From a virus, in the IMG/VR virus record IMGVR_UViG_3300050821_001198, positions 62,001-126,000 of that record: a stretch of DNA of 64,000 bases; one strand, 5' to 3'. The notes under the pieces are model-generated. The model ran no database searches. It had not been told where the DNA came from and saw only the letters and a list, made by a program, of their open reading frames with translations. Positions 2,577 through 55,622 of this stretch are shown in pieces. Position 1 is the first letter of the stretch; each line of letters begins with the position of its first letter. The position numbers and the translations under genes were made by a program.

Positions 2577-2605
2577 TTGCGCTTTCATGATATCGGTGGT
2601 AAGGT
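2577..2605 (+). promoter_or_regulatory. Candidate leaderless promoter for the SWIM-finger gene
   Basis: TTGCGC (2577-2582), 17-bp spacer ending TGG, then TAAGGT (2600-2605). Six bases later comes the GTG start at 2612, so transcription should begin at the start codon. The -35 is weak. The geometry equals that of the promoters at 43489 and 50236, which supports it. Confidence 0.5.
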
Positions 2606-2611
2606 TTCACC

Positions 2612-2920
2612 GTGGATTTGAAAGTCAAACAGGTATGTCGTTCCTCCGAGGGCTGGCAGGCTGTCAAGGTCGAATCGTCTAGTGACCCTGATGTCACTTA
2701 CGTAGTGCTCGTGAATCCGTGGGGCGACCCACAGGAGAACATCTGCGACTGCAAGGGCTATCAGTATCGTGGCCACTGCTCTCATCAGACGAAGGCCGAG
2801 GAAAAGAACTGTGCGTGGAGCGCAAACGACTATCTAGCAGAGACCCAGACCCCGGAAGAAGAGCGTCTACAGCGCTGCCCCAAGTGCGGCGGCCCAACCA
2901 AATTGGAGTTGACCCTATGA
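2612..2920 (+). CDS. SWIM-type zinc finger protein with C-terminal zinc ribbon half
   Basis: 102 residues, GTG start. The middle holds CDCKGYQYRGHCSH, the CxC...CxH pattern of SWIM zinc fingers, which bind DNA or proteins. A CPKCGG knuckle lies near the C-terminus. The start fits a leaderless promoter 6 nt upstream. It overlaps the next gene by ATGA. The role is unknown; the zinc-binding pattern is clear. Confidence 0.75.
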   Translation: MDLKVKQVCRSSEGWQAVKVESSSDPDVTYVVLVNPWGDPQENICDCKGYQYRGHCSHQTKAEEKNCAWSANDYLAETQTPEEERLQRCPKCGGPTKLELTL

Positions 2921-3180
2921 CCCCGCAGACAATGCTCAAGCCAGAGGCTTACTTCCTCGATGGCGTTGTCGTAGCTCCCGTTGAAGCACTAATGGTGGGC
3001 GATCTTGTTAGGTTCGACCCGCGCGACACCGACTACCCGGTGGACTTCGTATTGGGAATTTCCCTGCGTAAAGGCACCTTTTACATGCCCTCGGTTGTCA
3101 CAGTGACACATGAGACCGGATCATGGTCGAAGGTGGTCGGGGAGCCCGTAGGGATCGCCGGACGGGACCTATATGTCTGA
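2917..3180 (+). CDS. Hypothetical protein (87 aa)
   Basis: 87 residues from ATG 2917, which overlaps the previous stop as ATGA. A longer open frame reaches back to 2719 but overlaps the SWIM gene, so the ATG with GGAG upstream is preferred. Mostly beta-prone, with a GDLVRFDP segment like those of small beta-barrel proteins. No family recognised. Overlaps the next gene by 8 nt. Confidence 0.65.
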   Translation: MTPQTMLKPEAYFLDGVVVAPVEALMVGDLVRFDPRDTDYPVDFVLGISLRKGTFYMPSVVTVTHETGSWSKVVGEPVGIAGRDLYV

Positions 3181-3769
3181 GGTTGACGAGCTTCTCTTCA
3201 TCACGACACAGCTAGGTGAATCCTACTTCGCCTGGAAGGAGGAAGAGAAGAACAAGGAGGCCGACCGTAAGGCGTTCTTCGAGCTAGCCATCGCGGCGAA
3301 CAAGGACGCCACCATGCGTACCAAGGTGGTTGAGATCAAGCTGGTCGGGTTCGCTCAGGACATCGATACTGCCACTGCTCGTGCGGAGCAGAAGCACCCT
3401 CGATTCATCGTCAAGGGAGTCCAGGAGACCTCGGCAGACGAAACATCTACAACCTACAAGGCTGTTCTCGAAGAAGATCCTCAATGGCTTGACTTCACCT
3501 ACATCAACAAACGCGACGGGAATGTGTACTGCCGCAAAGTCGAAGACGGTAAGATGCACGTTGACGGGGACCGCATGGAGGAAGAGGACCCAGAGCTTTT
3601 CAAGAGCGTCACTATGGAGACATGGGGTGGCGAGCATATCGTGATGCCGTTCCAGTTCATGGATGACGCCACGCTGAATCGGGTTCAGCCCTACATCTAT
3701 CAGGGTAAGCCGGTGGCGAAATTGTCACCCGTGCGAGCCGCTAAGCCAGAAGAACTAGAGGAAGCATGA
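3173..3769 (+). CDS. Hypothetical protein (198 aa)
   Basis: 198 residues, acidic and hydrophilic, with a charged N-terminal helix (WKEEEKNKEADRKAFFELA). No membrane segment, signal or catalytic motif is visible. Translationally coupled on both sides (8-nt overlap upstream, ATGA downstream), so it belongs to the replication-region operon. No family recognised. Confidence 0.7.
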   Translation: MSEVDELLFITTQLGESYFAWKEEEKNKEADRKAFFELAIAANKDATMRTKVVEIKLVGFAQDIDTATARAEQKHPRFIVKGVQETSADETSTTYKAVLEEDPQWLDFTYINKRDGNVYCRKVEDGKMHVDGDRMEEEDPELFKSVTMETWGGEHIVMPFQFMDDATLNRVQPYIYQGKPVAKLSPVRAAKPEELEEA

Positions 3770-4002
3770 CATCTCCCGCTCGTAGACTGAAGCGCCGACA
3801 GGGGAGGGATACCACTTACCGGCTCAAGAAGCTCGCCATGGTGCTCCCGAACTTCAACATCGTCCCTGACGCGCCCGTAGAGCCGGAAGTGCTCAAGCGG
3901 AGCGCGGGCGACTACACACCCCTTCCGAATAAGCGCAAGCAGAAGCGTAGGGCTGTCAGGGCCGCTCGCCGTGCCAGTAGAGGGTCCGTCCGTGGCTCCT
4001 AA
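3766..4002 (+). CDS. Small highly basic protein (78 aa)
   Basis: 78 residues rich in Arg and Lys. The C-terminus is almost entirely basic (KRKQKRRAVRAARRASRG), like a nucleic-acid-binding tail. ATGA overlap with the preceding gene. Expression is supported by coupling; the function is unknown. Confidence 0.6.
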   Translation: MTSPARRLKRRQGRDTTYRLKKLAMVLPNFNIVPDAPVEPEVLKRSAGDYTPLPNKRKQKRRAVRAARRASRGSVRGS

Positions 4003-4567
4003 TCGGATAACCCTAGTAGGAGCCCCCGGCGCTGGCAAGTCAGACCTGGCGAATGCTCTCTTTCCGCATCTAGTGGAGCGAGGGATGAACCCTCTCCGGA
4101 TCATCGACCACGTTCATGTGGATGTAGAGGAACGGTACGATCTGGCCGTTGGGATGGCCGGTGGTTACATCGCTGACATTGCTGTCGCCCTAGAAAGAAT
4201 CGGCCAGGAGCGGGCATATATCGCCCAGGGCATTGAGCATTTCATTGTATGTGGATCGCTTGCTGAGAACGCGATTCACACGGCGATCAACGCCGAGATC
4301 TCAGCCGACCAGTTCTCATACGGTGTGGCCCAGGTAGTGACCCCCTTGTACCCGCTCATCCGAATGTCCATGGGGATTCACCCTACCTATCTGGTACCGT
4401 ATCTAGACGACGAGATCCAATTCAACCGCGCCGTGGCGAGCCAAATGGCGCTAGGTCTAGAAGCTCTAGACATGGCCTACAAGGAACTTCCGGTGGGCCT
4501 CGACAACCAGGTGGAGTACATTATTGATGACCTTTTCGCAGACCAAGACGCTCAAACTCCCAACTAA
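3992..4567 (+). CDS. P-loop NTPase, kinase-like
   Basis: 191 residues. A Walker A motif GAPGAGKS lies near the N-terminus (about residues 11-18), with DHVHVDVEERYD shortly after. Size and motif position match small nucleotide or polynucleotide kinases, but the substrate cannot be told. GTG 3992 is chosen because AGAGGG precedes it; GTG 3971 is the alternative and gives 198 residues. The stop lies inside the start of the helicase loader gene. Confidence 0.65.
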   Translation: MAPNRITLVGAPGAGKSDLANALFPHLVERGMNPLRIIDHVHVDVEERYDLAVGMAGGYIADIAVALERIGQERAYIAQGIEHFIVCGSLAENAIHTAINAEISADQFSYGVAQVVTPLYPLIRMSMGIHPTYLVPYLDDEIQFNRAVASQMALGLEALDMAYKELPVGLDNQVEYIIDDLFADQDAQTPN

Positions 4568-5402
4568 GGAGGGTATCCTTACCCTCCCGATCCTGACAGA
4601 CGCCGAGTTTGATTGGGTCGAGCGAAACGCGGCCAAGCGTCTTGATCGTTGCCCTACATGTGACGGTAAGCGACTAGACGGAAGTGAGGCAGGGAAGATC
4701 CAAGCCTCGGATAATCACTACGGAGAGGTCAATGGTCAGTATCGCTACCTTGACCAGATTCACGAGTGCGACTGTCAGGCACAGATGGCTCTCTACCGCC
4801 ACTACACGGCCGCCGGAATCGGGGAGCAATACATGCGCCTCGACTGGACCGAGGACTACCACGGAGACACAGAGGCTAAGCGCTTCATCGACACCTACTG
4901 CGAGAAGTGGAAGAACGCTCGTCAAAACGGCATGGGGGTGACACTCTGGTCGGCCGAGGTTGGGACGGGCAAGACATTCGGGGCCACTCATATAGCCAAG
5001 TACCTAATCAAGCGTGGTCAGCGGGTTCGGCTAATTCACTTCGATGACATCGTGACCACGGCCATCGATGGGACCGTTGAAGAGATGGACGCCCTCCAGC
5101 GCATCCCGTTTCTGATCTTGGATGAGGTTTGGTATAACCCTCGCCAGAGTGAGGCACAGAAGGCCCTCTTTGGGGAACACTTCGAGCGTTTGATCCGGTA
5201 CCGAACCAACCGGAACGTACCGACAATCCTCACTACCAACTTCTCCCCGGAGCAGCTAGGCAAGCACTGGCCTCGCATCAATTCGCTCCTTGCAGCCAAG
5301 CAATTCGTGATCGAATTCCATGGCCAGGACTACCGTCTCGGCCAGTCAGTGATCGACAACAAAGAACTGTTCATGAACGACGAGGTAAGGCCCATCATAT
5401 GA
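4527..5402 (+). CDS. DnaC-like AAA+ helicase loader
   Basis: 291 residues. An N-terminal region has a zinc-binding pattern (CPTCDG at about 42, CDC at about 81), followed by an AAA+ core: Walker A AEVGTGKT at about 143-150, Walker B FLILDE at about 195-200, sensor TILTTNFS near 235. This matches DnaC/DnaI-type ATPases that load the replicative helicase. The DnaB-like helicase lies two genes downstream, which supports the role. ATG 4527 follows GGTGGAG. ATGA-type overlap with the next gene. Confidence 0.82.
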   Translation: MTFSQTKTLKLPTKEGILTLPILTDAEFDWVERNAAKRLDRCPTCDGKRLDGSEAGKIQASDNHYGEVNGQYRYLDQIHECDCQAQMALYRHYTAAGIGEQYMRLDWTEDYHGDTEAKRFIDTYCEKWKNARQNGMGVTLWSAEVGTGKTFGATHIAKYLIKRGQRVRLIHFDDIVTTAIDGTVEEMDALQRIPFLILDEVWYNPRQSEAQKALFGEHFERLIRYRTNRNVPTILTTNFSPEQLGKHWPRINSLLAAKQFVIEFHGQDYRLGQSVIDNKELFMNDEVRPII

Positions 5403-5770
5403 GCTTCGTAGACCCCAAAGACGAGCATCCAGACATCAAGAAGATCGACATTGCCGAGTTCCGCGAGAAGGGTTACCTTCACGAGTTGAATCGGCGCTTT
5501 CTCCACCCGCTAGGGCTCGCCCTGGCAATCGACGTGGACTCCAACGGTAAGGAGACGCTCGCCTACATCTGGGACTACCGGGAGGACCCGGAGGGGATTT
5601 ACTACGACGAGGATCTCCTTGACCCCGAAAAGACTGAGCATATCGAACAGATCTGGGATGCGCGTATGGCCGCTCGGATCGCAGCGCTTGGATACATGGT
5701 TCAGCCAGTGTGGACGGTCGGGTGCGGGTGCGCCAAGTGCGAGAAATGGGTCTGTGAGTGCGATGGTTGA
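5399..5770 (+). CDS. Conserved hypothetical phage protein with C-terminal Cys cluster
   Basis: 123 residues. The central part (YLHELNRRFLHPLG...YIWDYREDPEG) resembles a conserved uncharacterised protein common in actinophages. The C-terminus is Cys-rich (CGCAKCEKWVCECDG), a likely metal-binding tail. It lies between helicase loader and helicase and overlaps both neighbours, suggesting a link to replication. The resemblance is from memory. Confidence 0.65.
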   Translation: MSFVDPKDEHPDIKKIDIAEFREKGYLHELNRRFLHPLGLALAIDVDSNGKETLAYIWDYREDPEGIYYDEDLLDPEKTEHIEQIWDARMAARIAALGYMVQPVWTVGCGCAKCEKWVCECDG

Positions 5771-5999
5771 AGACCAGGACCCCAACCGTCGCAAGGCGGA
5801 GCAGTTTCACGCCGATCTCACCGAGGCACTGAGTTGTGTAGTTGACTATCAGCGCACACTTGCTACTGTGCTGAGAGCGTCGGACCCACATAGGCCGCGT
5901 ACTAACCCTCTGATGACGAAATACGGAGTTCCACTTGAGCCCCACCCTTACAACAACTGGCCCGGAGCAAATGGAAACGTCAGACTCATCAACGCTTGA
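5763..5999 (+). CDS. Hypothetical protein (78 aa)
   Basis: 78 residues from ATG 5763, within the end of the preceding gene; GTG 5754 is an alternative start. The N-terminal half looks helical (NRRKAEQFHADLTEALSCVV) and the C-terminus is Pro/Asn-rich. Its end overlaps the helicase start. No family recognised. Confidence 0.55.
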   Translation: MVEDQDPNRRKAEQFHADLTEALSCVVDYQRTLATVLRASDPHRPRTNPLMTKYGVPLEPHPYNNWPGANGNVRLINA

Positions 6000-8253
6000 G
6001 GGTCCGCTATCGCTAGACCTCGATGATGAGATCATCTTCCATCTTGCGATTCCTGAGTCGGTTGATGAGATGCGGAAGGAACAGATCGGCACTAAGCTGA
6101 TCTATGACAAGTTCACCCGCACCGTCTACGACTGGCAGATGCAGCATGTCAGGGATCATGGCAAGCCCGCGACTGCTCTCGTACTCGAAGACGAGTTCGA
6201 CGGCTCTCAGGAGGATCTACCGGCTCTACAGATCCTCAGACCCGAGACGGCCATTGGAGACCTGATCACGAGACTCCGTGAGCGCCATGTACGCAACGAA
6301 GGTAAGGCGTCCGCCAAGCGGATCTCCAACACGGTCGTAGAGGCCCCTCTAGAGGTTGCACGGGTCATGGTGAGCGAGGGCAAGCGCCTAGGTGAACTGA
6401 TCGCTCGGCGCGGGGAGCGGTTTGGCTCAGGAGACTTCACACGAGCCCTGAACATCTACGAGAAGGACAAGCTCGCCGGGGCGGGACCATCACTTGGATA
6501 CGCGGAGCTTGACGAGCACTTTTACGGCATGAAGGGGCTCACATTCCTAGTCGGCGCTCCTAAGACCTACAAGGCTCTGGCTCTTGATACCCCTATCCCG
6601 ACACCGACAGGGTGGACTCTAATGGGAGATCTTAGAGTCGGAGATTCTGTATTTGATGAAACCGGGAATGTATGTCGGGTTACTGCCCAAACAGAAGTAT
6701 TCACTGGACGACCGTGTTACAGAGTCGAGTTTTCGGATGGGACCCATGTCATCGCGGACAAGGATCACGAATGGGTGACTTTTCAGAAATCGAAAAGGGG
6801 TCGGTCTTCTATTTCTACAACCGAAGAGATTATTCAGACTCTTCGGAGACCCGATATAGGATCGAACCACTCGATTCCTGTATCGGGGGCGATTACATGT
6901 TCCGAATCACAGTTCAAGGTTTCTCCCTACGTACTAGGAGCCTGGTTAGGAGATGGAACATCAGAAGATGGAGCGATCACCACCGGCGACCCCGACATTC
7001 TCTGTGAAATCATGGATCACTTTCAAATCCGAAAATGGAAGTCTGCGAAACTCACCTATGGAGTACTAGGGCTAAGAGTGCGCTTGCGTGAGCTTGGGGT
7101 ACTTGGAAACAAGCATATACCCACCGCATATCTGAGAGGCAATTACTCTCAGCGTCTAGAACTTTTACAGGGTCTAATGGATACTGACGGGTCATGCACC
7201 GGCAAGGGAGAGTGTGTCTTTGTGACCACGAAGCCCGCCCTCCGAGACGGGATTCTTGAGTTGGTTAGGTCGCTTGGATTCAAACCTGTGGCTAATGAGT
7301 ATCGGGCCACTCTCTACGGTGAAGACTGTGGACCTAAGTGGCATGTGCGATTCAAGGCATATTCGGATACTCCAGTCTTCCGACTTCAGCGGAAGCTTCA
7401 AAACCAGGATGATCCGCCAAACAGGCAAACCAGATCTCAGACACGGCAGATTACAAACGTAGTGAGCGTCCCAAGTACTCCGGTCAAATGTATTGAGGTT
7501 GACTCGCTTAGCCACCTGTATCTAGCTGGTGAGGGAATGATCCCAACTCACAATAGCTGGATCACCACTAACGCCCTTATCCAGAACGTACTCCAGGGGC
7601 GTCACTGTTGGCTCTACTCGCTGGAGCTACCGGCGGTTGAGGCATACTGGCGTGTCATGTGTATGGCGGCCAACGTGCCGTACTGGAAGTACCTAAAGTC
7701 AGTGCTTATGCCAGCGGAGCTTGACCATCTCCACGCCATCGAGGGTGAACTGATGGAGATGGGCACGTTCAGCACAGAGAAGCCTCCGGTGGGCGAACGC
7801 TCGGTCGAAGCTATGACCGAGAAGGCCGCGTCAGGCGGTGCCGATGTCATCTTCATCGATCAGCTTCAGTATTGTGAGACGCAGGCGGGACGGTCTATCG
7901 GGTCACTCAACAACACGGGTGACTATTGGGAGGTCTGTGATGATTTCCGGGACTTCTCCGACAAGGTGCCACTCTGGATCGTTCACCAGTTCAACCGTTC
8001 CGTCATGAACAACAAGGACGGCATGCCCGAGGCTCAGCAGGGGAAGGGTTCGAGCGCCATTGAAGAAACAGCCACTCTGGAGCTTGGTCTTTGGGCTAAC
8101 AAAGAGCTACGAGCCTCGAATGTGCTCCAGGTGGGCACTCTGGCGTCCCGTAACTATGACCACCTAGAGTGGCATCTGGATGTGAACCTGAGCAATGGGT
8201 GCTCGTTTGATATGCGCGGGGTAGTGGACGACGAAGAGGACGAAGATGATTGA
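5971..8253 (+). CDS. dnaB: DnaB-like replicative helicase interrupted by an intein
   Basis: Precursor of 760 residues. The extein has a DnaB N-terminal-like helical region, then a RecA-fold ATPase. Its P-loop reads GAPKTYK-S after splicing, with Walker B IFIDQLQ further on. A 327-residue intein (residues 202-528) splits the P-loop between K and S, so the helicase is inactive until splicing. Unwinds DNA at the fork with the loader and primase encoded next to it. ATG 5971 follows GGAG; the longer frame from TTG 5935 is less likely. The stop overlaps the primase start. Confidence 0.88.
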   Translation: METSDSSTLEGPLSLDLDDEIIFHLAIPESVDEMRKEQIGTKLIYDKFTRTVYDWQMQHVRDHGKPATALVLEDEFDGSQEDLPALQILRPETAIGDLITRLRERHVRNEGKASAKRISNTVVEAPLEVARVMVSEGKRLGELIARRGERFGSGDFTRALNIYEKDKLAGAGPSLGYAELDEHFYGMKGLTFLVGAPKTYKALALDTPIPTPTGWTLMGDLRVGDSVFDETGNVCRVTAQTEVFTGRPCYRVEFSDGTHVIADKDHEWVTFQKSKRGRSSISTTEEIIQTLRRPDIGSNHSIPVSGAITCSESQFKVSPYVLGAWLGDGTSEDGAITTGDPDILCEIMDHFQIRKWKSAKLTYGVLGLRVRLRELGVLGNKHIPTAYLRGNYSQRLELLQGLMDTDGSCTGKGECVFVTTKPALRDGILELVRSLGFKPVANEYRATLYGEDCGPKWHVRFKAYSDTPVFRLQRKLQNQDDPPNRQTRSQTRQITNVVSVPSTPVKCIEVDSLSHLYLAGEGMIPTHNSWITTNALIQNVLQGRHCWLYSLELPAVEAYWRVMCMAANVPYWKYLKSVLMPAELDHLHAIEGELMEMGTFSTEKPPVGERSVEAMTEKAASGGADVIFIDQLQYCETQAGRSIGSLNNTGDYWEVCDDFRDFSDKVPLWIVHQFNRSVMNNKDGMPEAQQGKGSSAIEETATLELGLWANKELRASNVLQVGTLASRNYDHLEWHLDVNLSNGCSFDMRGVVDDEEDEDD
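6574..7554 (+). mobile_element. Class 3 intein with LAGLIDADG homing endonuclease domain
   Basis: 327 residues from Ala (ALALDTPIPTPTG) to the terminal His-Asn, followed by Ser. The first residue is Ala, so the usual N-terminal Cys/Ser nucleophile is missing. The class 3 WCT triad is present: Trp in block B (DHEW), Cys in block F (VKCIEVD), Thr in block G (IPTHN). Two dodecapeptide endonuclease motifs, LGAWLGDGT and LLQGLMDTDG, retain their acidic residues, so homing may be active. The segment looks AT-richer than its host gene by eye. Confidence 0.9.
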
Positions 8254-9277
8254 GTATGAGGACTTCGTTCACGACATCGACTACGAGCGGCTATACGACG
8301 CCCTAGACTTTGAGCCGCTTCGTCAGGACGGCGACGACAACGACATCGGTCAGTGCTTCGATCTACTAGGGCTCCACAAGAATGGAGATCGCACCGGGAA
8401 GTTCGTCTTCTACCGGGAAAGCGGGTTGGTGAGTTGTTACGTATGCGGGAGTTGCACCTTGCTCTCGTTCGTGGAGTCGATGTTCGACTATGACGAAGAT
8501 CAGGCAACACGCTGGCTATACCAATTCGCTGACGACGTAGAGCAGACAGACGAGTCGTTCCTGAACGAGATCGATGACATCCTGAAGGATCGGACACCTA
8601 AGAAGGTGATTCAGCCCCGCTTCGCCCCACAGATCCTAGACAGGTATCAGCCCTATAACGAATGGCCTGAGATTGCCGAGGTTTGGGCGGAGAACAAGGG
8701 GGTGTCGGCGGAAGTTGCAGACAAGTTCAAGCTGCGGTTCGGGCGCATCCGGACGATGACAGACGCTAAAGAGCCCTGGATAGGTGAGGCAATCATCATC
8801 CCGCACTTCTGGCGGGACAAGCTCGTGGGGTGGCAGCAGCGGTGGCTCTCGGACGACCGCCCCGAGGGGGTCGGAAAGTACAAGAGCACAGCAGATATCC
8901 CGCGCTATGACACCCTGTTCAACTACGACCGGGCCTGCGGAGAGGATATCCCGATCTTCATTGTCGAATCGCCGTCTACCGTACTCTGGCTCGCAAGCTG
9001 TGATGTTCCGGCGGTGGCTAGCTTTGGAGCAAAGATCACCCCGGCCCAAATGCGCCTACTCAGGCGTTTTCAGCAGGGAGTAGTGATCGCTCCCGACAAC
9101 GATGGACCGGGCAGGAATTTCGCCACTCTGATCAGTGAGTATCTGGAGCCGTTTGTGCCCGTGTACCAGTGTGATCCGGTTCAAATCAAGGGAATCAACG
9201 ACGGGTGTGACCTAGGGGATCTGGCTCCTAATATGGACGCACTGAGTCGTCACCTTGACACAATGTTCCGGGTCTAA
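8246..9277 (+). CDS. dnaG: DnaG-like DNA primase
   Basis: 343 residues, about half the size of bacterial DnaG. The N-terminus has a CHC2-like zinc site (Cys37, Cys64, Cys67, Cys70). A TOPRIM core follows: the conserved acidic IFIVESPSTV near 236 and the metal-binding APDNDGPG near 280. It lacks a clear C-terminal helicase-binding domain. Makes RNA primers for the DnaE polymerase. Eight-nt overlap with the helicase gene. Confidence 0.85.
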   Translation: MIEYEDFVHDIDYERLYDALDFEPLRQDGDDNDIGQCFDLLGLHKNGDRTGKFVFYRESGLVSCYVCGSCTLLSFVESMFDYDEDQATRWLYQFADDVEQTDESFLNEIDDILKDRTPKKVIQPRFAPQILDRYQPYNEWPEIAEVWAENKGVSAEVADKFKLRFGRIRTMTDAKEPWIGEAIIIPHFWRDKLVGWQQRWLSDDRPEGVGKYKSTADIPRYDTLFNYDRACGEDIPIFIVESPSTVLWLASCDVPAVASFGAKITPAQMRLLRRFQQGVVIAPDNDGPGRNFATLISEYLEPFVPVYQCDPVQIKGINDGCDLGDLAPNMDALSRHLDTMFRV

Positions 9278-9295
9278 CCGCTCAGATAACCCGCA

Positions 9296-9409: not shown

Positions 9410-9419
9410 GTGGTACAGT
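9390..9419 (+). promoter_or_regulatory. Promoter for the ssDNA-binding-like gene (TTGACA-N18-TACAGT)
   Basis: TTGACA (9390-9395), 18-bp spacer ending TGG, TACAGT (9414-9419) followed by AAC. The -35 and the 9-mer TACAGTAAC are identical to the nrdJ promoter, and both spacers contain CAGTGAAA. A strong vegetative-type promoter. Confidence 0.75.
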
Positions 9420-11310: not shown

Positions 11311-11523
11311 ATGGCTTCTAAGCCGACCACCTACAAGCAGCGAGTGCTCGCACTCCTGAAGCCGCGCCGCTGGACCTCTTCGTTCGACATTCAGGGTGTC
11401 GGCGGGCTCGACGGCCTCCGTCGTGTCCGAGAGCTTCGTGCGGACGGCTACGAGATCAAGCGGCGTCCCGACGCCACCGATCCGGGCCAGTACGAGTACC
11501 GACTGGTCTCGTCTCCCAAGTAG
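11311..11523 (+). CDS. Small winged-helix-like protein
   Basis: 70 residues, ATG 11311 with AAAGGG upstream. The sequence (RVLALLKPRRWTSSFDIQ...RRVRELRADGYEIKRR) reads like a short winged-helix domain: helix, turn, recognition helix, beta wing. Such small proteins are frequent in phages as DNA-binding regulators. Target unknown. Confidence 0.65.
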   Translation: MASKPTTYKQRVLALLKPRRWTSSFDIQGVGGLDGLRRVRELRADGYEIKRRPDATDPGQYEYRLVSSPK

Positions 11524-16383: not shown

Positions 16384-17248
16384 CTTCAAGGTCGCCGCCA
16401 CTAATCGAACGCTGATGCAGTCCCTCAACCTGGGGTATCGAGTCGCACCGGCCATCGACAACTGGCTGGACAATAATCCGGAGAAGGAGTGGGGCTTTCA
16501 CTTTGAGCCCAAGATCCCTGATGACGCTTGGCACCCTTCTGGGGATTGCACGCCTAGCGTTTACGATCTCTGGTTGAAGGCCACCGGAGCCGCTGTCAGG
16601 AAACCCCTCTCGGTTGGGCTCAAGAAGACGTTTGGGGTGGGCCATTACTACCATCAGTGGATTCAGTGGATTCTCAGGGACGAACTTCAGTGGTGCAAGC
16701 CCGAGGACGTGGAACGTCGTGGGGGCTCATGGTGGGGCGAGCGAGAGTTCCTTGAACACGCCGACTACGACAACCCGACACCGGCTCCGGAGAACGCCTG
16801 GGGGCTTTGGCCGGGGAAGATGTGTGATGACCGTCTGGAGGGGTATTTCAAGCCCTCTCCGTTCCACTGGTCAACCGGATCGGCCGATATCGCGCCACTT
16901 GTCTTGCCTGATGCGACCAATTTATTGTTCGACATCAAGTCAATAAGTGGTAGTGACGCTAAGTTTGACACCCCTCCTGCCCGCTATGTGGACAAGTGGG
17001 AATGTCAGGCGTGCATTTACCTGGACTGGTTCCCGGAGTGCGAAGAGGCTATCTTCTTTGGCGTCAGCAAGGAGAATCCGCATGGATTCAAGGAGTGGGT
17101 CTTCAAGCCCAACCCTCCGCTAGTGGAAGCCATCTACGAGAAGTGGCAGTTGGTAACGTTTCTGATCGATGAGGGGATCACGCCGGATGAGGAAGACGCT
17201 GACCTCTGGATTGATCTACCTCTACAGGGAATCGTATGCGCCTCCTAG
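16376..17248 (+). CDS. Cas4/RecB-like PD-(D/E)XK exonuclease
   Basis: 290 residues. The core STGSADIAPL...LLFDIKSIS has the GxxD and (D/E)xK nuclease signature, followed by YVDKWECQACIYLDWF, the QxxxY-type motif of the RecB nuclease family. Early Cys residues could form part of an iron-sulfur or zinc site, but the four-Cys set of Cas4 is not clear. Probably processes DNA ends for RecA. ATG 16376 chosen; overlaps both neighbours. Confidence 0.72.
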   Translation: MGNFKVAATNRTLMQSLNLGYRVAPAIDNWLDNNPEKEWGFHFEPKIPDDAWHPSGDCTPSVYDLWLKATGAAVRKPLSVGLKKTFGVGHYYHQWIQWILRDELQWCKPEDVERRGGSWWGEREFLEHADYDNPTPAPENAWGLWPGKMCDDRLEGYFKPSPFHWSTGSADIAPLVLPDATNLLFDIKSISGSDAKFDTPPARYVDKWECQACIYLDWFPECEEAIFFGVSKENPHGFKEWVFKPNPPLVEAIYEKWQLVTFLIDEGITPDEEDADLWIDLPLQGIVCAS

Positions 17249-43488: not shown

Positions 43489-43517
43489 TTGACTTAGAGC
43501 GGTGCCAATGCTATACT
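43489..43517 (+). promoter_or_regulatory. Leaderless extended -10 promoter of the membrane protein gene
   Basis: TTGACT (43489-43494), 17-bp spacer ending TGC, TATACT (43512-43517). The ATG at 43524 begins 6 bp after the -10, so the predicted start site is the A of the start codon. Confidence 0.75.
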
Positions 43518-43523
43518 CCTAGC

Positions 43524-43742
43524 ATGATCTTCGTAAACCTACTTATCTTCCTCGCCGTGGTAGGAGGTAGCTGGTGGCTCGTCCGAGGGCTCATCCGAGG
43601 GATTCGGAATCCGAAACCCTGTCGGCCCAAGACAACCGTCTGGAACGCCGGATGGTCAAACCCCCTACCCAATCTGCACTACGACGAACAGATGGAAGAG
43701 TACGAGCGCCTGATGGAGCGGTGGCGGGCTAATCGTCGCTAA
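43524..43742 (+). CDS. Small single-pass membrane protein, lone plus-strand gene in the tail operon
   Basis: 72 residues. One N-terminal membrane helix (FVNLLIFLAVVGGSWWLVRGLI), basic RGIRNPK after it (positive-inside), then a polar C-terminal tail ending in helical EEYERLMERWRANRR. Antisense orientation, own promoter and leaderless start mark it as a moron-like gene. Superinfection exclusion proteins have this size and form, but the function is unknown. Its end overlaps the convergent chaperone gene by 14 nt. Confidence 0.72.
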   Translation: MIFVNLLIFLAVVGGSWWLVRGLIRGIRNPKPCRPKTTVWNAGWSNPLPNLHYDEQMEEYERLMERWRANRR

Positions 43743-48951: not shown

Positions 48952-48954
48952 GGG

Positions 48955-49371
48955 TTAGTCCATTGTCAACTGGATGGACGAACTTGAGAAGTCGAGGGAG
49001 TCGCCAGAGTTGATCGTGCGCGGAGTGTTGAGGTAGCCCCACCAGATCTGATTGCCGCCGCTAGGGAGGTCCAGGAGCGAAAAGCCGGTGACGATACCCC
49101 AAGCGGCGGTGGCACCACCAGAGGCCGGAAACGCGACCGCTGTGATATTCGTGGAAACGGCGGGAGATCCAGAGGCTTCCGTGAAGTACATGGACTGACG
49201 AAGATAGGCACCCCCGGAGACCTCGGTCCCGGCAGTAGTGTCAGTCGGGGCAACCGTATACAGTGCAAGCCATAGAGAGGAAGGGACGTTCGTGCCTCCG
49301 TTGCCGGTGCTAGCGTTGAGCAGGAGTTGCTCTCCGTACTGTGTAAGTGATCCGATTGAAGGGAGGGGCAT
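48955..49371 (-). CDS. Conserved phage structural protein (138 aa)
   Basis: 138 residues, a compact beta protein with LWLALYTVAPTDTTAGTEV, AYLRQSMYFTEASGSP and IWWGYLNTPRTINSGD. This arrangement occurs in an uncharacterised phage structural family I recall from many tailed phages. Likely a virion surface or connector piece. Confidence 0.65.
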   Translation of the reverse strand: MPLPSIGSLTQYGEQLLLNASTGNGGTNVPSSLWLALYTVAPTDTTAGTEVSGGAYLRQSMYFTEASGSPAVSTNITAVAFPASGGATAAWGIVTGFSLLDLPSGGNQIWWGYLNTPRTINSGDSLDFSSSSIQLTMD

Positions 49372-50214
49372 TTAGTAGTAACCTCGTCCTAGGTTAGCTG
49401 AGCGCAGAGGGGCTCCAATGAGCCTCCCGGCCTTGTTAGAGACCAGACCCTTGCTGTGACCCAGGCCCAAGAACTGGCGCTTGAAGAGGGCGACCCACCG
49501 CATGTAACGCTGCATCTCTACCTCGTAGATTTGAAGCCAGCGGGTCATGTAGTCGCGGCGATCCTCGTAAGTCACCTGGCCACCGAGTAGCGAGGGTTGC
49601 TCGACATAGGAGGTAACAAGGTGGAGAATCACGGCTAGGAAGGTACCCTGCACCAAGAGCGGCATGTTGGCTGTTGCCCGGCCGCCTGTGATGAAGTACG
49701 TCTCAGAGAGGTTGGTCGGGGGGTTCTGCTGATTGATGTCAAAGAGCGCCTCCGCGATGAAGGTCGGCATCTTGTCCTTGTTGAAGAAGTTGAGTGTCAT
49801 GTCACGGAGCCAAGGTCCCTCGTCCTCAGCGTCAAAGCAATCCTCGATCCTGGCCCAGACAGCCCTACCGATGATCTCGTCATCAGTGGGAGTCGGCGGG
49901 TTGAACGGGTCGATAACCTCGAAGGTACAGCGGCTCGACTTGATTTGGCCGCTGGCGTAGGTGAATGTGGCGATTGCCTTGTAGACCCCAATCAGGGTTG
50001 ACGTGTTCGTGTACCTGGTGTAACCTGTACCGTCAGCGATGATCGTCCCGGCCTGCGATGTTGTAGCACCGGACGGGTCCTGAATAGTGAAAGTGACCGT
50101 CGCAAGATCGTCCTGAGGAACGGGCGCGTCGAAATCGTCGTAGAGATAGGCGTTGATCTCGGCGGTGTCACCGAGATTCACGTAGCGGACTTCAAGATCC
50201 CAAGCAACAGTCAT
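49372..50214 (-). CDS. Ig-like domain plus head-tail connector-like protein
   Basis: 280 residues. Residues about 1-100 look like an Ig/Big-type beta-sandwich (VTFTIQDPSGATTSQAGTI...YTNTSTLIGVYKAIATFTY). The rest is helical (DDEIIGRAVWARIEDCFDAEDEGPWL), resembling small head-tail connector folds. First minus-strand gene upstream of the plus-strand protease island. Confidence 0.6.
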   Translation of the reverse strand: MTVAWDLEVRYVNLGDTAEINAYLYDDFDAPVPQDDLATVTFTIQDPSGATTSQAGTIIADGTGYTRYTNTSTLIGVYKAIATFTYASGQIKSSRCTFEVIDPFNPPTPTDDEIIGRAVWARIEDCFDAEDEGPWLRDMTLNFFNKDKMPTFIAEALFDINQQNPPTNLSETYFITGGRATANMPLLVQGTFLAVILHLVTSYVEQPSLLGGQVTYEDRRDYMTRWLQIYEVEMQRYMRWVALFKRQFLGLGHSKGLVSNKAGRLIGAPLRSANLGRGYY

Positions 50215-50235
50215 CGTCGCTGATTACCGGGGCGC

Positions 50236-50264
50236 TTGACGGCTGAATCCGGGGGTGCTAGGAT
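50236..50264 (+). promoter_or_regulatory. Leaderless extended -10 promoter of the FtsH-like gene
   Basis: TTGACG (50236-50241), 17-bp spacer ending TGC, TAGGAT (50259-50264), then 6 bp and the ATG at 50271. Same geometry as at 43489. Confidence 0.72.
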
Positions 50265-50270
50265 CGCTTC

Positions 50271-51908
50271 ATGGCATCCATTCTCTTCTCCGGGAGCAAC
50301 TGTCCCGATTGCGGACATCCCGGAGTAGAGGCAGATTGTCCGATCTGCGAGTGGTCGGTCATGGACGAGTGCCAGCCCTACTCTCTAACCGCTCCGGAGT
50401 ACGTAGGACCCGATCCGGGCGTAGACGAAGACCTGACGCCTGAGAGCCTCGTGGTTCGCCGCGAAGTCTTCTTTCGTGAGGGCTCACCATTCGCTCCCGT
50501 CAACACCGAGGATATCGTCGGGATCGATAGGGTCCTCGAAGACCTCGATGAAGTAGTCCATTGGCTTCAGAATCCAGAGCGTTACGCGGAACTGAACGCA
50601 CGATGCGAGCCCGGGATCATCCTTGCTGGGCCTCCTGGGACCGGAAAGACCATGACGGCTCGGTGGATTGCGACCGAGAGCAAGGCGCACTTCATCAATA
50701 TGCGCGAGTGGCCTCGCACGAAGCTTGAGATGACGGCCGAAGACATCGCGGCCCTCTATGAGTGTGCTCGGGCGTTCTGTCGCGAGACGGGCAAGCCGGT
50801 CATTCTGTTCTGCGACGAGTTTGAGGGATATGCTCGGGCTCGCTTTAGCGACGGCATCACTCCGACCCAGACGGGCCTAATCGAACAGTTCCTTGAGGAA
50901 CTCAGTGGTATCAAGGGGAACAACTACGGGCTGCTCACAGTGGGCTGCACGAATCACCTTGAGAACATCGACAGCGCCCTGAAGCGCGATGGGCGAATGG
51001 GTCTGCACTACTACTTCAGTGCTCCTGACCGGCCCGGTAAGTCACTTCTCCTTCAGCACTATCTCAAGGAGTACAACGTCGGTGACATCGACTATGACAA
51101 TCTGTCGTACTTCTTTGAGTCGGACGATCACGCTGCGGTGATCGAAGAGGCGTGCATGAAGGCTTGGAGAAACGCCTGTCGCCACGCCATCAAGGCGGGG
51201 ACCAAGCTCCCGGTGTTGGGAGAGCAGGATCTCATCAAGGTCTTCATTAGGCACTTGGTTGGGCCTCCACCAACCTTCATGGATCGCAGCGCCGACGACA
51301 TCCTCCAGACGGCTATCCACGAAGTTGGTCACGCACTTGCCGCTTTGCTCAATGACATCCCCCTGCGCCTGATTACCGTACAGGCGGGGAAGATGAGCCT
51401 GGGACGTACGATCTTTGCAGGGGTTCGCGAACACGTTGCCACGGTCGGAGAACTCAGGGCACACATTCGCCTCATGTACGGCTCCATTGCCGCCGAGAAG
51501 CTCTGTGGGATCGAGGATCACGTTGGCCCCAACGGAGATCGAACAAGCGCCACTGCTTTGGCTCATCAACTTGTGGACGATATGGCCGAGGGCGGCAACA
51601 CGGGGCTCGTCTCCTTCAAGTCCCTTGGTGGCGGGCGGAACAACTTAGGGGCGGGGATCGGGCAGGCCGTCTCTCACCGCCTTCTGGACGGCGCTGACGA
51701 AGACGTGCAGAAGATCCTTATCACGGAATACATCGCGTCCGTACGCGATATGAGAGGGATTGGGGCGAATGAGGACGAGTCTCGTGGCATCGTTGAGACC
51801 TTGGCTAAAATCCTTGTCGAGCGGGTCACCATGACCGGACCGGAGTTTCGTGCGGAAGTTGACAAACTCGGCGTCCGTCTGGTACGGTCCCAACCGGATG
51901 TCTACTGA
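50271..51908 (+). CDS. FtsH-like AAA+ zinc metalloprotease (family M41), soluble, with N-terminal zinc ribbon
   Basis: 545 residues. N-terminal zinc ribbon (Cys 11, 14, 23, 26) where FtsH has membrane helices; no hydrophobic segment is present. AAA+ core: GPPGTGKT near 120, ILFCDEFEG near 178, GCTNHLENID sensor, KRDGRMG with arginine finger. Peptidase domain: HEVGH at 350-354 and a third zinc ligand candidate Asp423 in NGDRTSAT. All catalytic residues are intact. Would unfold and degrade proteins in the cytoplasm; targets unknown. Plus-strand island in the structural operon. Confidence 0.88.
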   Translation: MASILFSGSNCPDCGHPGVEADCPICEWSVMDECQPYSLTAPEYVGPDPGVDEDLTPESLVVRREVFFREGSPFAPVNTEDIVGIDRVLEDLDEVVHWLQNPERYAELNARCEPGIILAGPPGTGKTMTARWIATESKAHFINMREWPRTKLEMTAEDIAALYECARAFCRETGKPVILFCDEFEGYARARFSDGITPTQTGLIEQFLEELSGIKGNNYGLLTVGCTNHLENIDSALKRDGRMGLHYYFSAPDRPGKSLLLQHYLKEYNVGDIDYDNLSYFFESDDHAAVIEEACMKAWRNACRHAIKAGTKLPVLGEQDLIKVFIRHLVGPPPTFMDRSADDILQTAIHEVGHALAALLNDIPLRLITVQAGKMSLGRTIFAGVREHVATVGELRAHIRLMYGSIAAEKLCGIEDHVGPNGDRTSATALAHQLVDDMAEGGNTGLVSFKSLGGGRNNLGAGIGQAVSHRLLDGADEDVQKILITEYIASVRDMRGIGANEDESRGIVETLAKILVERVTMTGPEFRAEVDKLGVRLVRSQPDVY

Positions 51909-52632
51909 GAAGCCCACCCTCGTCGTAGGGGATACACACGGCCATATAGATCGTCTCGCCGCCCTACTCCGACAGGAGGGAATCACGAATGACAAGGGTG
52001 ATCGAATTGACTTCGAGACCCGCGTCATTCACATTGGCGACATCATCGACGGTCGTATGAGCACCGTTGGTAGAGACAGGAGCATTCTGGAGGCGGCCAC
52101 AGATCGTCAGTGGATTGACGATCTCATCTGGGGGAACCACGAGCGAGGCTTGTTCGACCCGAATCGCCATGGGTTCAAAGGCATGCTCATAAGCCCGGAG
52201 ACGAAGATCCTGTTGAATCGGCTTGAGCGTAGAGGGCAGACCCACTATGCGCTGGCAGTCCACGACTTTCTTCTGACCCATGCTGGCCTCGGTGCGTATT
52301 GGGATAGTCAGGTCCCCGACGAACTAGAGGATGTCGTTACCATTCTCAACGGTCTGGACGGATACAACGCTGGCGTTCTTCATGCCGTGTCGTACCTCCG
52401 TCAAGGGTCACATCCGGCGGGCGGTATCATCTGGCGTGACGACAGCGAGCCGATCTCGGGCAAGTTCAATCAGGTCTACGGTCATACGGCGGACCCAGAC
52501 GCGCTGCACCGACTGCACGAGACAGACGGCAAGGTCGCTTACAAGATCGACATTGGGAAGAAGCACCCCGCTCTGGGCGGGATCTGGCTGCCTTCGCACA
52601 AGCTAGTGAAGATCGACTTGAGCGTGAGCTAG
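51898..52632 (+). CDS. Calcineurin-like metallophosphoesterase (PPP-type)
   Basis: 244 residues from ATG 51898, overlapping the protease end by 11 nt, so co-transcribed. All metal-site motifs are present in order: VVGDTHGH, HIGDIID, WGNHER, LLTHAGL and YGHTA. Resembles phage serine/threonine-type phosphatases such as lambda PP. Could dephosphorylate proteins or nucleotides. Convergent overlap with the next minus-strand gene. Confidence 0.85.
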   Translation: MSTEKPTLVVGDTHGHIDRLAALLRQEGITNDKGDRIDFETRVIHIGDIIDGRMSTVGRDRSILEAATDRQWIDDLIWGNHERGLFDPNRHGFKGMLISPETKILLNRLERRGQTHYALAVHDFLLTHAGLGAYWDSQVPDELEDVVTILNGLDGYNAGVLHAVSYLRQGSHPAGGIIWRDDSEPISGKFNQVYGHTADPDALHRLHETDGKVAYKIDIGKKHPALGGIWLPSHKLVKIDLSVS

Positions 52633-52986
52633 GCTCTCCGCCGGGGCACCCGGAACGTGATGAGGGTTAGAGATCTCCCACGTCTTGACCCCTTGCTTCC
52701 CTTCCTTCACCCCAGCGATGCTCTCGGCATTGGCGATCTCTGCTACATGAGCGCCTACCTGCTTGATGTGTGAATCGGAGATCGGGTGATCATCCGTCAT
52801 CACCACGACCGCACGGTGGAATGAAGGCTCCCCGCCCTGGGTTACAGGACGGGGAGGTTCAATATGGATGACAGACCGGGGTAGGGTCTGCTGGAGGTAG
52901 TGAAGAACGTGCTCGGAGATGTTCTTGAGCATGTTCCCTTGGCCATCATGCGTTGGGACGTAGAGGGTGTACTTGGCTTGGGCCAC
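52603..52986 (-). CDS. Hypothetical protein (127 aa)
   Basis: 127 residues from GTG 52986, 16 nt after the upstream stop. The longer frame to 53076 would overlap the upstream gene heavily. Sequence (AQAKYTLYVPTHDGQGNML...AVVVMTDDHPISDSHIK) looks like a small alpha/beta domain. Its last 30 nt overlap the convergent phosphatase gene. Role unknown, head-region position. Confidence 0.6.
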   Translation of the reverse strand: MAQAKYTLYVPTHDGQGNMLKNISEHVLHYLQQTLPRSVIHIEPPRPVTQGGEPSFHRAVVVMTDDHPISDSHIKQVGAHVAEIANAESIAGVKEGKQGVKTWEISNPHHVPGAPAESLAHAQVDLH

Positions 52987-53002
52987 GCCTATTAGGTAGA
53001 GC

Positions 53003-53350
53003 TTACGTCGTGCTTCCAGTGTGAAGCTGGAACGTCCGCACCTTGCTTGAATCCTGAGGCTCGCCACAAGCTCCACAGGTCCAACTACCGTTGGCCTTCA
53101 TAAGCACGGTCTCATGCTTACATTCCTGCGGATCGGATGACTCAAATACCCACTCACGAGTGGACGCTGGCCGGGGCGGAGCCTTGCAATCAACTACGCG
53201 CTCGATGTCGGTACCCTCTGCCCAACCCGGCTGAAGCCGGGTTCCAAGTCGATACACGTACTCAGTGTCAAGCAGTTCTCGTAGCTCTGACACGCCGCTC
53301 TCGATTCGTTTGAGGGCCGCGACAATCTGGGGGTTAGTCGTCGGAGGCAT
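53003..53350 (-). CDS. Hypothetical protein with zinc-finger-like C-terminus (115 aa)
   Basis: 115 residues from ATG 53350 (17-nt overlap upstream). A helical N-terminus (NPQIVAALKRIESGVSELRELLD) and a C-terminal metal-binding pattern (ECKHET...WTCGACGEP). Not recognised. Confidence 0.6.
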   Translation of the reverse strand: MPPTTNPQIVAALKRIESGVSELRELLDTEYVYRLGTRLQPGWAEGTDIERVVDCKAPPRPASTREWVFESSDPQECKHETVLMKANGSWTCGACGEPQDSSKVRTFQLHTGSTT

Positions 53351-53894
53351 CCGTATCACCCATCGGCACGGCCCGCCCGCTATGAGCGAACGTCGCCTTG
53401 TTGGTGTGACCAAAGTTACGCGGACCAATGGTCACAGATCGAATACCGCTCTTGCGTACCCGGTCAGAGATCTCTTGCGCGTGCTCCGCCATGATCTCTT
53501 CGAGCCCTAGGTGAAGGGCAAGTCCCCGACGCTGCTCCTGATTGAGCTTCTGAACCATCTCGGTGAGGCCGACACTCGGGAAGATACCCATCGTGTTGCC
53601 TCCGCGAGAAGCCAGTCCTGAGTAACGAACTGATCCGTTGCTCTCTTCGCCTGGCCAGAAGAGCATTTCGTCATCTCGGTCGCTCCATGTCTCGTCATCG
53701 GGGGTGATGACTGGAGGGAGCGGCTCGCGAGGACTCACCGGACCGTTGAAGAGTCTGGCGATCTTCTCTTCAGGCGTCTCCGGAATGGCAGACTCGGGTG
53801 CCGAGACCTCCGGGTAGATGTCTGTACCCAGGGTCTCGATGTAGTCGGCTGCCTTAGCGACGATGCTATGCAACTGGCGGAGTCGGGTTCGCAT
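53334..53894 (-). CDS. Hypothetical head-region protein (186 aa)
   Basis: 186 residues, acidic and Pro-rich in the first half, with a helical segment GLTEMVQKLNQEQRRGLALHLGLEEIMAEHAQEI behind it (shown in parts; residues about 110-143). Overlaps the Ala-rich gene by 29 nt. No family recognised. Confidence 0.58.
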   Translation of the reverse strand: MRTRLRQLHSIVAKAADYIETLGTDIYPEVSAPESAIPETPEEKIARLFNGPVSPREPLPPVITPDDETWSDRDDEMLFWPGEESNGSVRYSGLASRGGNTMGIFPSVGLTEMVQKLNQEQRRGLALHLGLEEIMAEHAQEISDRVRKSGIRSVTIGPRNFGHTNKATFAHSGRAVPMGDTDASDD

Positions 53895-54426
53895 CCTCAG
53901 TCACATCCTCTTGGTTCGCTTCTGGTTCGCTAGTGGTTTCCTCTGCGGCGGGCTCGGTCTCATCGACGGGCTCGGTTGGCTCATCGACCGGCTGCTCGGG
54001 CTCGGTCTCCTGGACGGGCTCGGGCTCTGCCTGAGCCTCTTCCGCTGGCTTCTCGGCTGCGGCTTCCTCGGCCGCCTTAGCTGCGGCCTCTGCCGCCTCG
54101 GCGTCCTCTCGGGCAACCCTTTCGGCCTCTTCAGCCGCCTTCGCGTCTGCCTCAGCCTGCGCCTCGGCCTCTGCGGCAGCCTGTGCCGCCGCCTCCGCTG
54201 CTGCCTGCTCCTGGGCTACTCGGGCCGCTTCAGCCGCCTGAGCGGCCTCCTGCTCGGCCTGAGCACGCGCTGCGGCCTCTGCCGCCTCTAGGTCTCGTTG
54301 CTCCTGCTCGTTGATAGCAGAGATCTGGGCCTCTGCTGCCTCACGCTGGTTTGCGGCGTTCGCCATGATGGCGGCGGTTGCCTCACCGACGCCTAGGCCG
54401 ATGAAGTCTGCGATTGTCTTAGGCAT
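53866..54426 (-). CDS. Ala/Glu-rich coiled-coil protein
   Basis: 186 residues. After a short N-terminus (PKTIADFIGLGVGEATAAIM), about 100 residues are nearly only Ala, Glu, Gln and Arg, typical of a long coiled coil or extended helix, then a Pro/Glu-rich disordered tail. Could act as a scaffold or spacer in head assembly. The underlying DNA is a low-complexity GCC/GCT repeat. Overlaps neighbours on both sides. Confidence 0.62.
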   Translation of the reverse strand: MPKTIADFIGLGVGEATAAIMANAANQREAAEAQISAINEQEQRDLEAAEAAARAQAEQEAAQAAEAARVAQEQAAAEAAAQAAAEAEAQAEADAKAAEEAERVAREDAEAAEAAAKAAEEAAAEKPAEEAQAEPEPVQETEPEQPVDEPTEPVDETEPAAEETTSEPEANQEDVTEDANPTPPVA

Positions 54427-55288
54427 TGTCTGCTCCTGTGACGGGTTGAATTGGGGTCCGGGTGGACGGGTCTATTACGGCGGTCGTCTCGACTGAGAAC
54501 GACTTGGGGGTCTTGAAACCTGCTAGAGCGGCACCGGGACCCTCTTCAGATTTGTGAGTACGGACGTACTCTGCGGAGATGCGCTCGGCCTCTTCCTTGG
54601 AACGGAGTCCTTGAGAGGTAGGGTGATCCTGGGTGCCGGGAAGCACAGAACGTCGGGGCGCTGCGATCTCCTGTACCTCGGCCGCGTTCGGCTGCTTCCG
54701 CACGACGACTGTCTTGTGCTCCTGGGTCGAGCCGCTACCAACGTCCACAACCTCACCAACGGTGATGCTGCGCTTGGCGAGACTCTCCTGGACGGTGACT
54801 GCCGTCTCGTACCGCTCGCCCGTTTCTGTGCGGAGGATGTCGGCCGCCGCATGAACGCGCTGCTGGTTCGTTGACTGCTGGTACATGGCGTACCCGGCAT
54901 CCTCGGCAGCCAGGGGCTCGAAGAGCGTCCCAACGTTGTTGGAGTAGTCGGTTGAGGCTAGCTCGGTGGCACTGAGCTTGGCGATGTCGCCACGCTGGCC
55001 ACGGGGCTGGAGAGTGATCGACCGTGACTTGTCACGCTCTTCGTCTCTGATCCGGACACGCACCACGACACCGTGAATGTTCCGAATGTGGTCGAGCACT
55101 ACTGGCTCGGGTTGAAGAACTGGCACCTGGCCACCGAGTAGCACTGGCACCATCTCTTCGATGGCTCGGGCTGCGGTCGCCTCGGCTTCCGCTTGTGCCT
55201 CGCGTCGGGCGAGGTAGTCGAGAGCGATATTGAGACCTCTCTCGGTCTTGTACGTCTTGTTGGGAAGACGCGGGTCAGTGAATGACAT
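54419..55288 (-). CDS. Hypothetical head-region protein (289 aa)
   Basis: 289 residues. N-terminal helix with Ala/Glu/Arg (DYLARREAQAEAEATAARAIEEM), a beta domain (VVVRVRIRDEERDKSRSITL), then mixed charged sequence. First gene of its minus-strand block. ATG 55288 has AAGGA upstream. No catalytic motif or family recognised. Confidence 0.6.
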   Translation of the reverse strand: MSFTDPRLPNKTYKTERGLNIALDYLARREAQAEAEATAARAIEEMVPVLLGGQVPVLQPEPVVLDHIRNIHGVVVRVRIRDEERDKSRSITLQPRGQRGDIAKLSATELASTDYSNNVGTLFEPLAAEDAGYAMYQQSTNQQRVHAAADILRTETGERYETAVTVQESLAKRSITVGEVVDVGSGSTQEHKTVVVRKQPNAAEVQEIAAPRRSVLPGTQDHPTSQGLRSKEEAERISAEYVRTHKSEEGPGAALAGFKTPKSFSVETTAVIDPSTRTPIQPVTGADNA

Positions 55289-55366
55289 GTGGGTGTGAGT
55301 TCCTTATCCGTATGGTCACTTCGACTTTACCCTTTCGGGCGCATTACTCGTCGCTTACCAGCGGGC

Positions 55367-55395
55367 TTGACCTCAGAAGATAGGGCTGCTATGGT
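55367..55395 (+). promoter_or_regulatory. Extended -10 promoter of the glycosyltransferase island
   Basis: TTGACC (55367-55372), 17-bp spacer ending TGC, TATGGT (55390-55395); the ATG at 55404 lies 8 bp after the -10, giving a 5' leader of only 1-2 nt or none. Confidence 0.7.
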
Positions 55396-55403
55396 AGACG
55401 AAC

Positions 55404-55622
55404 ATGGTGACAGATGCGGAACAAGCCTGGTTGGCTGGAATTCTAGAAGGATGGAGGCTCTCCCGGTCGGACGACATCATCGGATTCCTAACGCTCGTCT
55501 TGGCTCACCTGGGCGAGCGACGAACCGAACAAGCTAACCAAGCTGTCGCTGTGGCGCGTGCGAGCACACGCTCGACAGACTCGCCTTCCACCGACAGACA
55601 GGCGAGGTACCGGAACAAATGA
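55404..55622 (+). CDS. Small hypothetical protein (72 aa)
   Basis: 72 residues. Helical N-terminal half (EQAWLAGILEGWRLSRSDDIIGFLTLVLAHLG in parts), polar Arg/Ser/Thr C-terminus. First gene of a six-gene plus-strand island, with a leaderless-type start. ATGA overlap with the glycosyltransferase. Unknown. Confidence 0.6.
   Translation: MVTDAEQAWLAGILEGWRLSRSDDIIGFLTLVLAHLGERRTEQANQAVAVARASTRSTDSPSTDRQARYRNK

What the first reader, a model, noticed from the sequence alone, without database searches (positions are those of the whole stretch)
2577..55404. A family of leaderless promoters heading isolated transcription units
At 2577, 43489, 50236 and 55367 a TTGNNN-N17-(TGN)TANNNT promoter ends 6 bp (three cases) or 8 bp (one) before the start codon, so mRNAs should start at ATG/GTG. 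None of these starts has a clear ribosome binding site, unlike most other genes here. Actinobacteria translate leaderless mRNAs efficiently. Four independent units with the same geometry are unlikely by chance. Such genes could be expressed from host machinery at any time, including in a lysogenic or carrier state.
Basis: partly seen in the sequence, partly recalled or inferred. Interest (0 to 1): 0.7.

Follow-up and report, generated by a model that had tools for sequence, protein, structure and literature searches.

The report
Leaderless promoters in an actinobacterial phage
Four genes in this large phage, and about fifteen more elsewhere in its genome, carry a bacterial-type promoter so close to the start codon that their messenger RNAs should begin at the start codon itself, a known way of expressing genes in Actinobacteria that this group of environmental phages uses unusually often.

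Summary
All four TTG-N17-TGN-TANNNT boxes are where stated, 6, 6, 6 and 8 bp before GTG/ATG. The strict geometry occurs 4 times in the window against 0.07 expected. They belong to a genome-wide set: in the 128-kb virus record, 35 strong promoter cores occur against 2-10 for altered patterns, and 15 sit 6-8 bp before an open frame (about 1 expected). In 21 related IMG/VR records the fixed geometry occurs 97 times, its reversed control 7 times. Best single test: orthologs of the 2612 gene in 15 relatives keep TANNNT 6-8 bp before the same start codon in 14 of 16 cases (1.05 expected). The mechanism is most likely host sigma-A/extended -10 transcription giving leaderless mRNAs.

Corrections: only three units are isolated, counter-strand, moron-like inserts; 2612 leads the rightward replication block. 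Lack of a ribosome binding site is clean only at 43524 and 55404. Lysogeny is not supported (no integrase or resolvase). No transcript data exist.

Leaderless phage promoters, one heading a counter-strand gene in a structural operon, were already predicted in Cluster O mycobacteriophages, so these are new members of a known kind. Sampled cultured cousins (E3, LRRHood, Stormageddon) hardly use the arrangement.

The parts
2577..2611 (+). Leaderless promoter: TTGCGC (2577-2582), 17-bp spacer ending TGG, TAAGGT (2600-2605), 6 bp to the start
   Evidence: conserved -10/start spacing in relatives
2612..2920 (+). Head gene, 102 aa, GTG start, cysteine/histidine-rich small zinc-finger-like protein (CDC...CSHQ and CPKCGG motifs)
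   Evidence: alignment; orthologs in 15 of 24 related records
43489..43523 (+). Leaderless promoter: TTGACT, 17 bp ending TGC, TATACT (43512-43517), 6 bp to the start
43524..43742 (+). Isolated gene, 72 aa, hydrophobic N-terminus (likely membrane protein), between leftward structural genes
   Evidence: no convincing homolog
50236..50270 (+). Leaderless promoter: TTGACG, 17 bp ending TGC, TAGGAT (50259-50264), 6 bp to the start; SD-like AGGA overlaps the -10
50271..51908 (+). AAA+ / peptidase M41 (FtsH-like) protease, 545 aa, with Walker A GPPGTGKT, HEVGH and an N-terminal CxxC/CxxC pair
51859..51897 (+). Second promoter-like site inside the end of the FtsH-like gene: TTGACA, 18 bp ending TGG, TACGGT, 9 bp to ATG 51898
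51898..52632 (+). Phosphatase-like gene (weak metallophosphoesterase match), 244 aa; homolog in L024/L025 is itself headed by a leaderless promoter
55367..55403 (+). Leaderless or near-leaderless promoter: TTGACC, 17 bp ending TGC, TATGGT (55390-55395), 8 bp to the start
55404..57696 (+). Counter-strand unit: 72-aa head gene, glycosyltransferase-like protein (weak), dCMP deaminase (56414-56860), small proteins
57698..57723 (.). Bidirectional terminator-like hairpin between the 55404 unit and the convergent major capsid gene
   Evidence: -20.8 and -26.1 kcal/mol, z -3.9 and -4.7

Best explanation
The four sites are promoters read by the host's housekeeping RNA polymerase (sigma-A type, extended -10). 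They start transcription at or within about two bases of the start codon, so the mRNAs have no leader or an extremely short one and are translated by the leaderless route that Actinobacteria use efficiently. They are part of a genome-wide set of roughly 15-20 such promoters in this phage. The set heads small left-arm genes, the gene that leads the replication block (2612) and counter-strand, moron-like units inserted among the leftward structural genes. A promoter fused to its start codon makes a short self-sufficient head that lets a gene be expressed wherever it lands, without a ribosome binding site and outside the late structural programme. Shown here: the sequence geometry, its excess over chance, its conservation. 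Inferred: the start point of transcription, use of sigma-A, translation without a leader, independence of the late programme.
For: Window: 4 strict matches against 0.067 expected. Whole record: TTGAC-N16-18-TANNNT occurs 35 times, altered patterns 2-10, and the distance from -10 to an RTG that opens a frame peaks sharply at 6-8 bp (15 against 1.2 background). Twenty-one related records: 97 matches against 7 for the reversed pattern. Ortholog test at 2612: TANNNT 6-8 bp before the same start codon in 14 of 16 phages, with TGN in 12 of 16; composition-preserving shuffles give 1.05 (maximum 6) and 0.06 (maximum 3). Homologs of 56832 in L024, L039, L040, L081, L083 have TATACT-7-RTG; the 51898 homolog in L024/L025 has a leaderless head. 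The base before the start codon is a pyrimidine in 14 of 19 strong sites and never A, which fits a transcription start at the purine. No sigma-70 region 2 in the phage. Mycobacterial transcripts are nearly one quarter leaderless and a 5'-terminal RTG is necessary and sufficient (PMC4633059); a TANNNT signal about 12 bp upstream of the start marks leaderless genes, over 20% of genes in Actinobacteria (PMC3160421).
Against: No transcript 5' ends are available. At 2612 and 50271 an SD-like tetramer overlaps the -10, so a longer SD-led transcript is not excluded by sequence; conservation speaks against this at 2612, nothing decides at 50271. At 55404 the 8-bp spacing predicts a leader of 1-2 bases unless initiation shifts. 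The only FtsH-like homolog close enough to compare (G007) has no such promoter and lies inside an operon. The host is not identified.
Confidence: 0.85

Rival explanations
1. The genes are read from longer transcripts that start upstream, and the SD-like tetramers close to the start codon (AAGG at 2612, AGGA at 50271) serve as ribosome binding sites; the promoter resemblance is coincidental.
For: Duplex energies -6.4 and -9.7 at 2612 and 50271.
Against: Does not apply to 43524 and 55404. At 2612 relatives keep TGN-TANNNT with changing middle bases (TAAATT, TATTGT, TATGCT, TACAAT), which keeps a -10 but not an SD. Upstream genes at 43524, 50271 and 55404 run the other way.
Confidence: 0.1
2. The promoters have very short leaders (1-5 bases) rather than strictly none, and initiation relies on other features.
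For: 8-bp spacing at 55404; 10-bp at the G004 ortholog of 2612; 9-bp at 51898.
Against: Most sites sit at 6-7 bp, the spacing expected for a start at the first base of the codon. This is a variation of the same mechanism rather than a different one.
Confidence: 0.2
3. Chance matches in AT-richer counter-strand gaps.
For: The window is 58% G+C and the -35 at 2612 is weak (TTGCGC).
Against: Expected 0.067 for four observed; genome-wide and clade-wide excess with a peak at one spacing; conservation at 2612.
Confidence: 0.02

Closest known systems
Predicted leaderless SigA promoters PL1, PR2 and PL2 of Cluster O mycobacteriophages (Corndog group; PMC4351075)
   Same: SigA-like promoter with +1 predicted at the first base of the start codon; PL2 heads a counter-strand gene inside the virion structural operon.
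   Different: Different phage lineage; three such promoters named per genome there, about 15-20 here, and conserved across a clade of environmental phages.
Leaderless genes of Mycobacterium and other Actinobacteria (PMC4633059; PMC3160421)
   Same: TANNNT about 12 bp upstream of the start, RTG start, no SD in the transcript.
   Different: Cellular genes mapped by RNA-seq and ribosome profiling; here phage genes, by sequence only.
Adephagia (Cluster K) gene 90 predicted leaderless transcript (PMC11373665)
   Same: A phage gene with a promoter predicted to give a leaderless transcript.
   Different: A single gene, in a HicA/B-like toxin-antitoxin region of a temperate siphovirus.
Phage morons (autonomous inserted gene units; general knowledge)
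   Same: The 55404 unit has its own promoter, opposite orientation and a terminator-like hairpin, and is not conserved between relatives that keep the neighbouring structural genes.
   Different: No terminator found at the ends of the 43524 and 50271 units; expression from a prophage not shown.

Membership tests
Leaderless gene (actinobacterial type) | -10 (TANNNT) about 6-8 bp before the start codon | tested here: met
   excess over chance
Leaderless gene (actinobacterial type) | Start codon ATG or GTG | tested here: met
   GTG at 2612; ATG at 43524, 50271, 55404
Leaderless gene (actinobacterial type) | Transcript 5' end at the start codon | not testable with these tools
   no RNA data
Leaderless gene (actinobacterial type) | No SD in the mRNA | tested here: inconclusive
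   clean at 43524 and 55404; SD-like tetramer within the -10 at 2612 and 50271, which would lie outside a leaderless mRNA
Sigma-A/sigma-70 promoter | TTGACA-like -35, 16-18 bp spacer, TATAAT-like -10 | tested here: met
   43489, 50236, 55367 score 9-10 of 12; 2577 has a weak -35 with an extended -10
Phage moron | Own promoter, inserted between genes that are adjacent in relatives, own terminator, expressed from a prophage | tested here: inconclusive
   promoter met for three units; variable presence met; terminator met only for the 55404 unit; prophage expression not testable and no integrase in the record

The most novel reading that the evidence does not exclude
A clade of large environmental actinobacterial myoviruses related to Bxz1/E3 expresses many of its non-virion genes one by one from promoter-plus-start-codon cassettes that give leaderless mRNAs, a trait that the sampled cultured relatives hardly share. 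In one member (G015) a near-identical 38-bp cassette has been copied in front of about ten unrelated neighbouring genes.
Probability: 0.5. Interest if true: 0.6.

Novelty: new member of a known kind. Interest (0 to 1): 0.42.

Why it matters
It gives exact start codons and testable transcription starts for otherwise unassigned genes in an uncultured phage group. It separates a host-polymerase-readable gene set from the virion genes. It also shows that promoter and start codon can travel together as a short self-sufficient head for genes inserted against the direction of the structural operon. Start codons of such genes are easily mis-called by annotation tools that rely on ribosome binding sites.

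Tried and rejected
Chance was rejected by resampling, altered-pattern and reversed-pattern controls. A search for close FtsH-like relatives in viral contigs found none. Homologs of the 43524 gene were not found (best E 0.012 in one record), so its promoter could not be tested by conservation; the 55404 gene had no hit in the capsid-flank loci and was not searched further. A lysogeny reading was tested through integrase and resolvase families and not supported. Attachment-site repeats at the edges of the Solirubrobacter element were sought and not found. Shared spacer motifs among this phage's own promoters were looked for by eye and none is evident, unlike in G015 and G002. The counts for relatives come from stretches partly chosen because they held hits; the unbiased figures are those and the within-stretch distance profile.

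Full report
WHAT THE WINDOW IS. The window is positions 62001-126000 of a 128,248-bp virus record. Its major capsid protein (57743-58807, minus strand) is 51-53% identical to those of Rhodococcus phages Finch and E3 and of Bxz1-like mycobacteriophages, and up to about 80% identical to many uncultured IMG/VR contigs. One close relative lies in a 602-kb contig of the actinobacterium Solirubrobacter. An actinobacterial host is therefore likely, though not shown for this virus. The left arm holds rIIA/rIIB-like, Dda-like helicase and anti-restriction genes, then terminase and portal. The plus strand from 4.5 to 21 kb holds helicase loader, DnaB-like helicase, primase, DNA polymerase and UvsX-like recombinase. 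The minus strand from about 22 to 64 kb holds virion genes, including tail sheath, capsid and a probable maturation protease.

THE OBSERVATION. All four sites read as stated. Each is a TTG hexamer, 17 bp that end in TGN, TANNNT, and 6, 6, 6 or 8 bp before GTG/ATG. They are the only strict matches in the window, all on the plus strand, and each opens a frame of at least 70 codons. Markov resampling gives 0.067 such matches per window (0.027 with frames of 60 codons or more). An independent sigma-70 scan of 43-58.5 kb ranks 43489, 50236 and 55367 among its six hits, the only three of them with TG before the -10.

A GENOME-WIDE SET. Over the whole record, TTGAC-N16-18-TANNNT occurs 35 times, while patterns with a scrambled -35, altered -10 or wrong spacing occur 2-10 times. 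The distance from -10 to an ATG/GTG that opens a frame of 25 codons or more peaks at 6-8 bp: 15 sites against 1.2 expected from other distances. Many left-arm sites are closer to consensus than those in the window, for example TTGACA-N17-TATAAT-7-ATG at record position 11346. They head small genes of unknown function and a glycosyltransferase. In 21 related records the fixed geometry occurs 97 times and its reversed control 7 times. In the cultured cousins E3, LRRHood and Stormageddon there is almost no such signal, although leaderless genes are common in Mycobacterium.

CONSERVATION. The 2612 protein has orthologs in 15 of 24 related records, 36-54% identical, with invariant cysteines and histidines and the same start position in those aligned. 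TANNNT stands 6-8 bp before the start codon in 14 of 16 phages and TGN-TANNNT in 12 of 16; shuffles give 1.05 and 0.06. Apart from two closely similar pairs, the upstream sequences are at most 44% identical position by position. The -35 is conserved only in part, so the extended -10 and its spacing to the start are what is kept. Two further cases: relatives of 56832 have TATACT-7-RTG when they head a unit, while in this window that gene lies inside an operon without a promoter; and the 51898 homolog in L024/L025 has its own leaderless head while in L038/L080 it is operon-internal. The promoter thus follows head position. Among promoter hits around the capsid in relatives, 32 of 36 are on the strand opposite to the capsid gene (p 2e-6, or 2e-4 after an approximate removal of near-duplicates).

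WHAT THE UNITS ARE. The unit at 55404-57696 (small head gene, glycosyltransferase-like, dCMP deaminase and small genes) ends in a strong hairpin that can terminate transcription both ways before the convergent capsid gene. The unit at 50271-52632 encodes an AAA+/M41 (FtsH-like) protease and a phosphatase-like protein. The unit at 43524-43742 encodes a small, probably membrane, protein. None of these three head genes is conserved where the neighbouring structural genes are, apart from one FtsH-like homolog at the same junction in L050. They behave like morons. The 2612 gene is different: a conserved gene that leads the replication block.

HOW IT WORKS. With the last T of the -10 six or seven bases before the start codon, initiation at the usual place begins the mRNA at the first base of the codon. 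The preceding base is a pyrimidine in 14 of 19 strong sites, as expected for a purine start. Actinobacterial ribosomes initiate on a 5'-terminal RTG (PMC4633059), and TANNNT about 12 bp upstream of the start is the published mark of leaderless genes (PMC3160421). The phage shows no sigma-70 region 2, so the host factor is the likely reader. These steps are inferred, not measured.

LIMITS. There are no RNA data. At 50271 an AGGA within the -10 leaves an SD-led transcript possible. Persistence as a lysogen is not supported for this phage.

NOVELTY. Leaderless SigA promoters in phages, including one heading a counter-strand gene in a structural operon, were predicted for Cluster O mycobacteriophages (PMC4351075). 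What is added here is the number per genome, the clade-wide conservation and, in relative G015, about ten copies of one promoter-plus-ATG cassette before unrelated genes.

Noticed in passing
L098 (G015:40001-60000), record positions about 50.1-57.2 kb, minus strand: About ten consecutive unrelated small genes are each headed by a near-identical 38-bp leaderless promoter cassette (TTGACATCYGACCCGAAAGGTAGTAGTCT-N6-ATG).
   Followed up: partly
G002 record (one search hits): Several leaderless promoters share a TTAGGTC/ATAGGCTATACT motif in the spacer and -10, suggesting a common regulator or copied promoter.
   Followed up: no
window 50271-51908: Phage-encoded FtsH-like AAA+/M41 protease with intact Walker A and HEVGH motifs and an N-terminal CxxC pair where cellular FtsH has membrane segments; closest relative found is 47-48% identical, in the Solirubrobacter element.
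   Followed up: partly
L091/L092/L093 (Solirubrobacter contig 223-376 kb): A relative of this phage group lies inside a 602-kb bacterial contig, with a tyrosine integrase about 2.5 kb beyond the IMG/VR boundary; no att repeat found. Possible prophage of a Bxz1-like myovirus.
   Followed up: partly
window 51859-51897: Near-consensus promoter inside the 3' end of the FtsH-like gene, 9 bp before the phosphatase-like gene.
   Followed up: partly
record position 16667 (left arm, minus): A strong promoter stands before a very short frame that overlaps the leader of the rIIB-like gene; possible leaderless upstream peptide.
   Followed up: no
record positions 54158-54565: LAGLIDADG-endonuclease-like ORF (weak) on the plus strand with a leaderless-type promoter in the terminase/portal region.
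   Followed up: no
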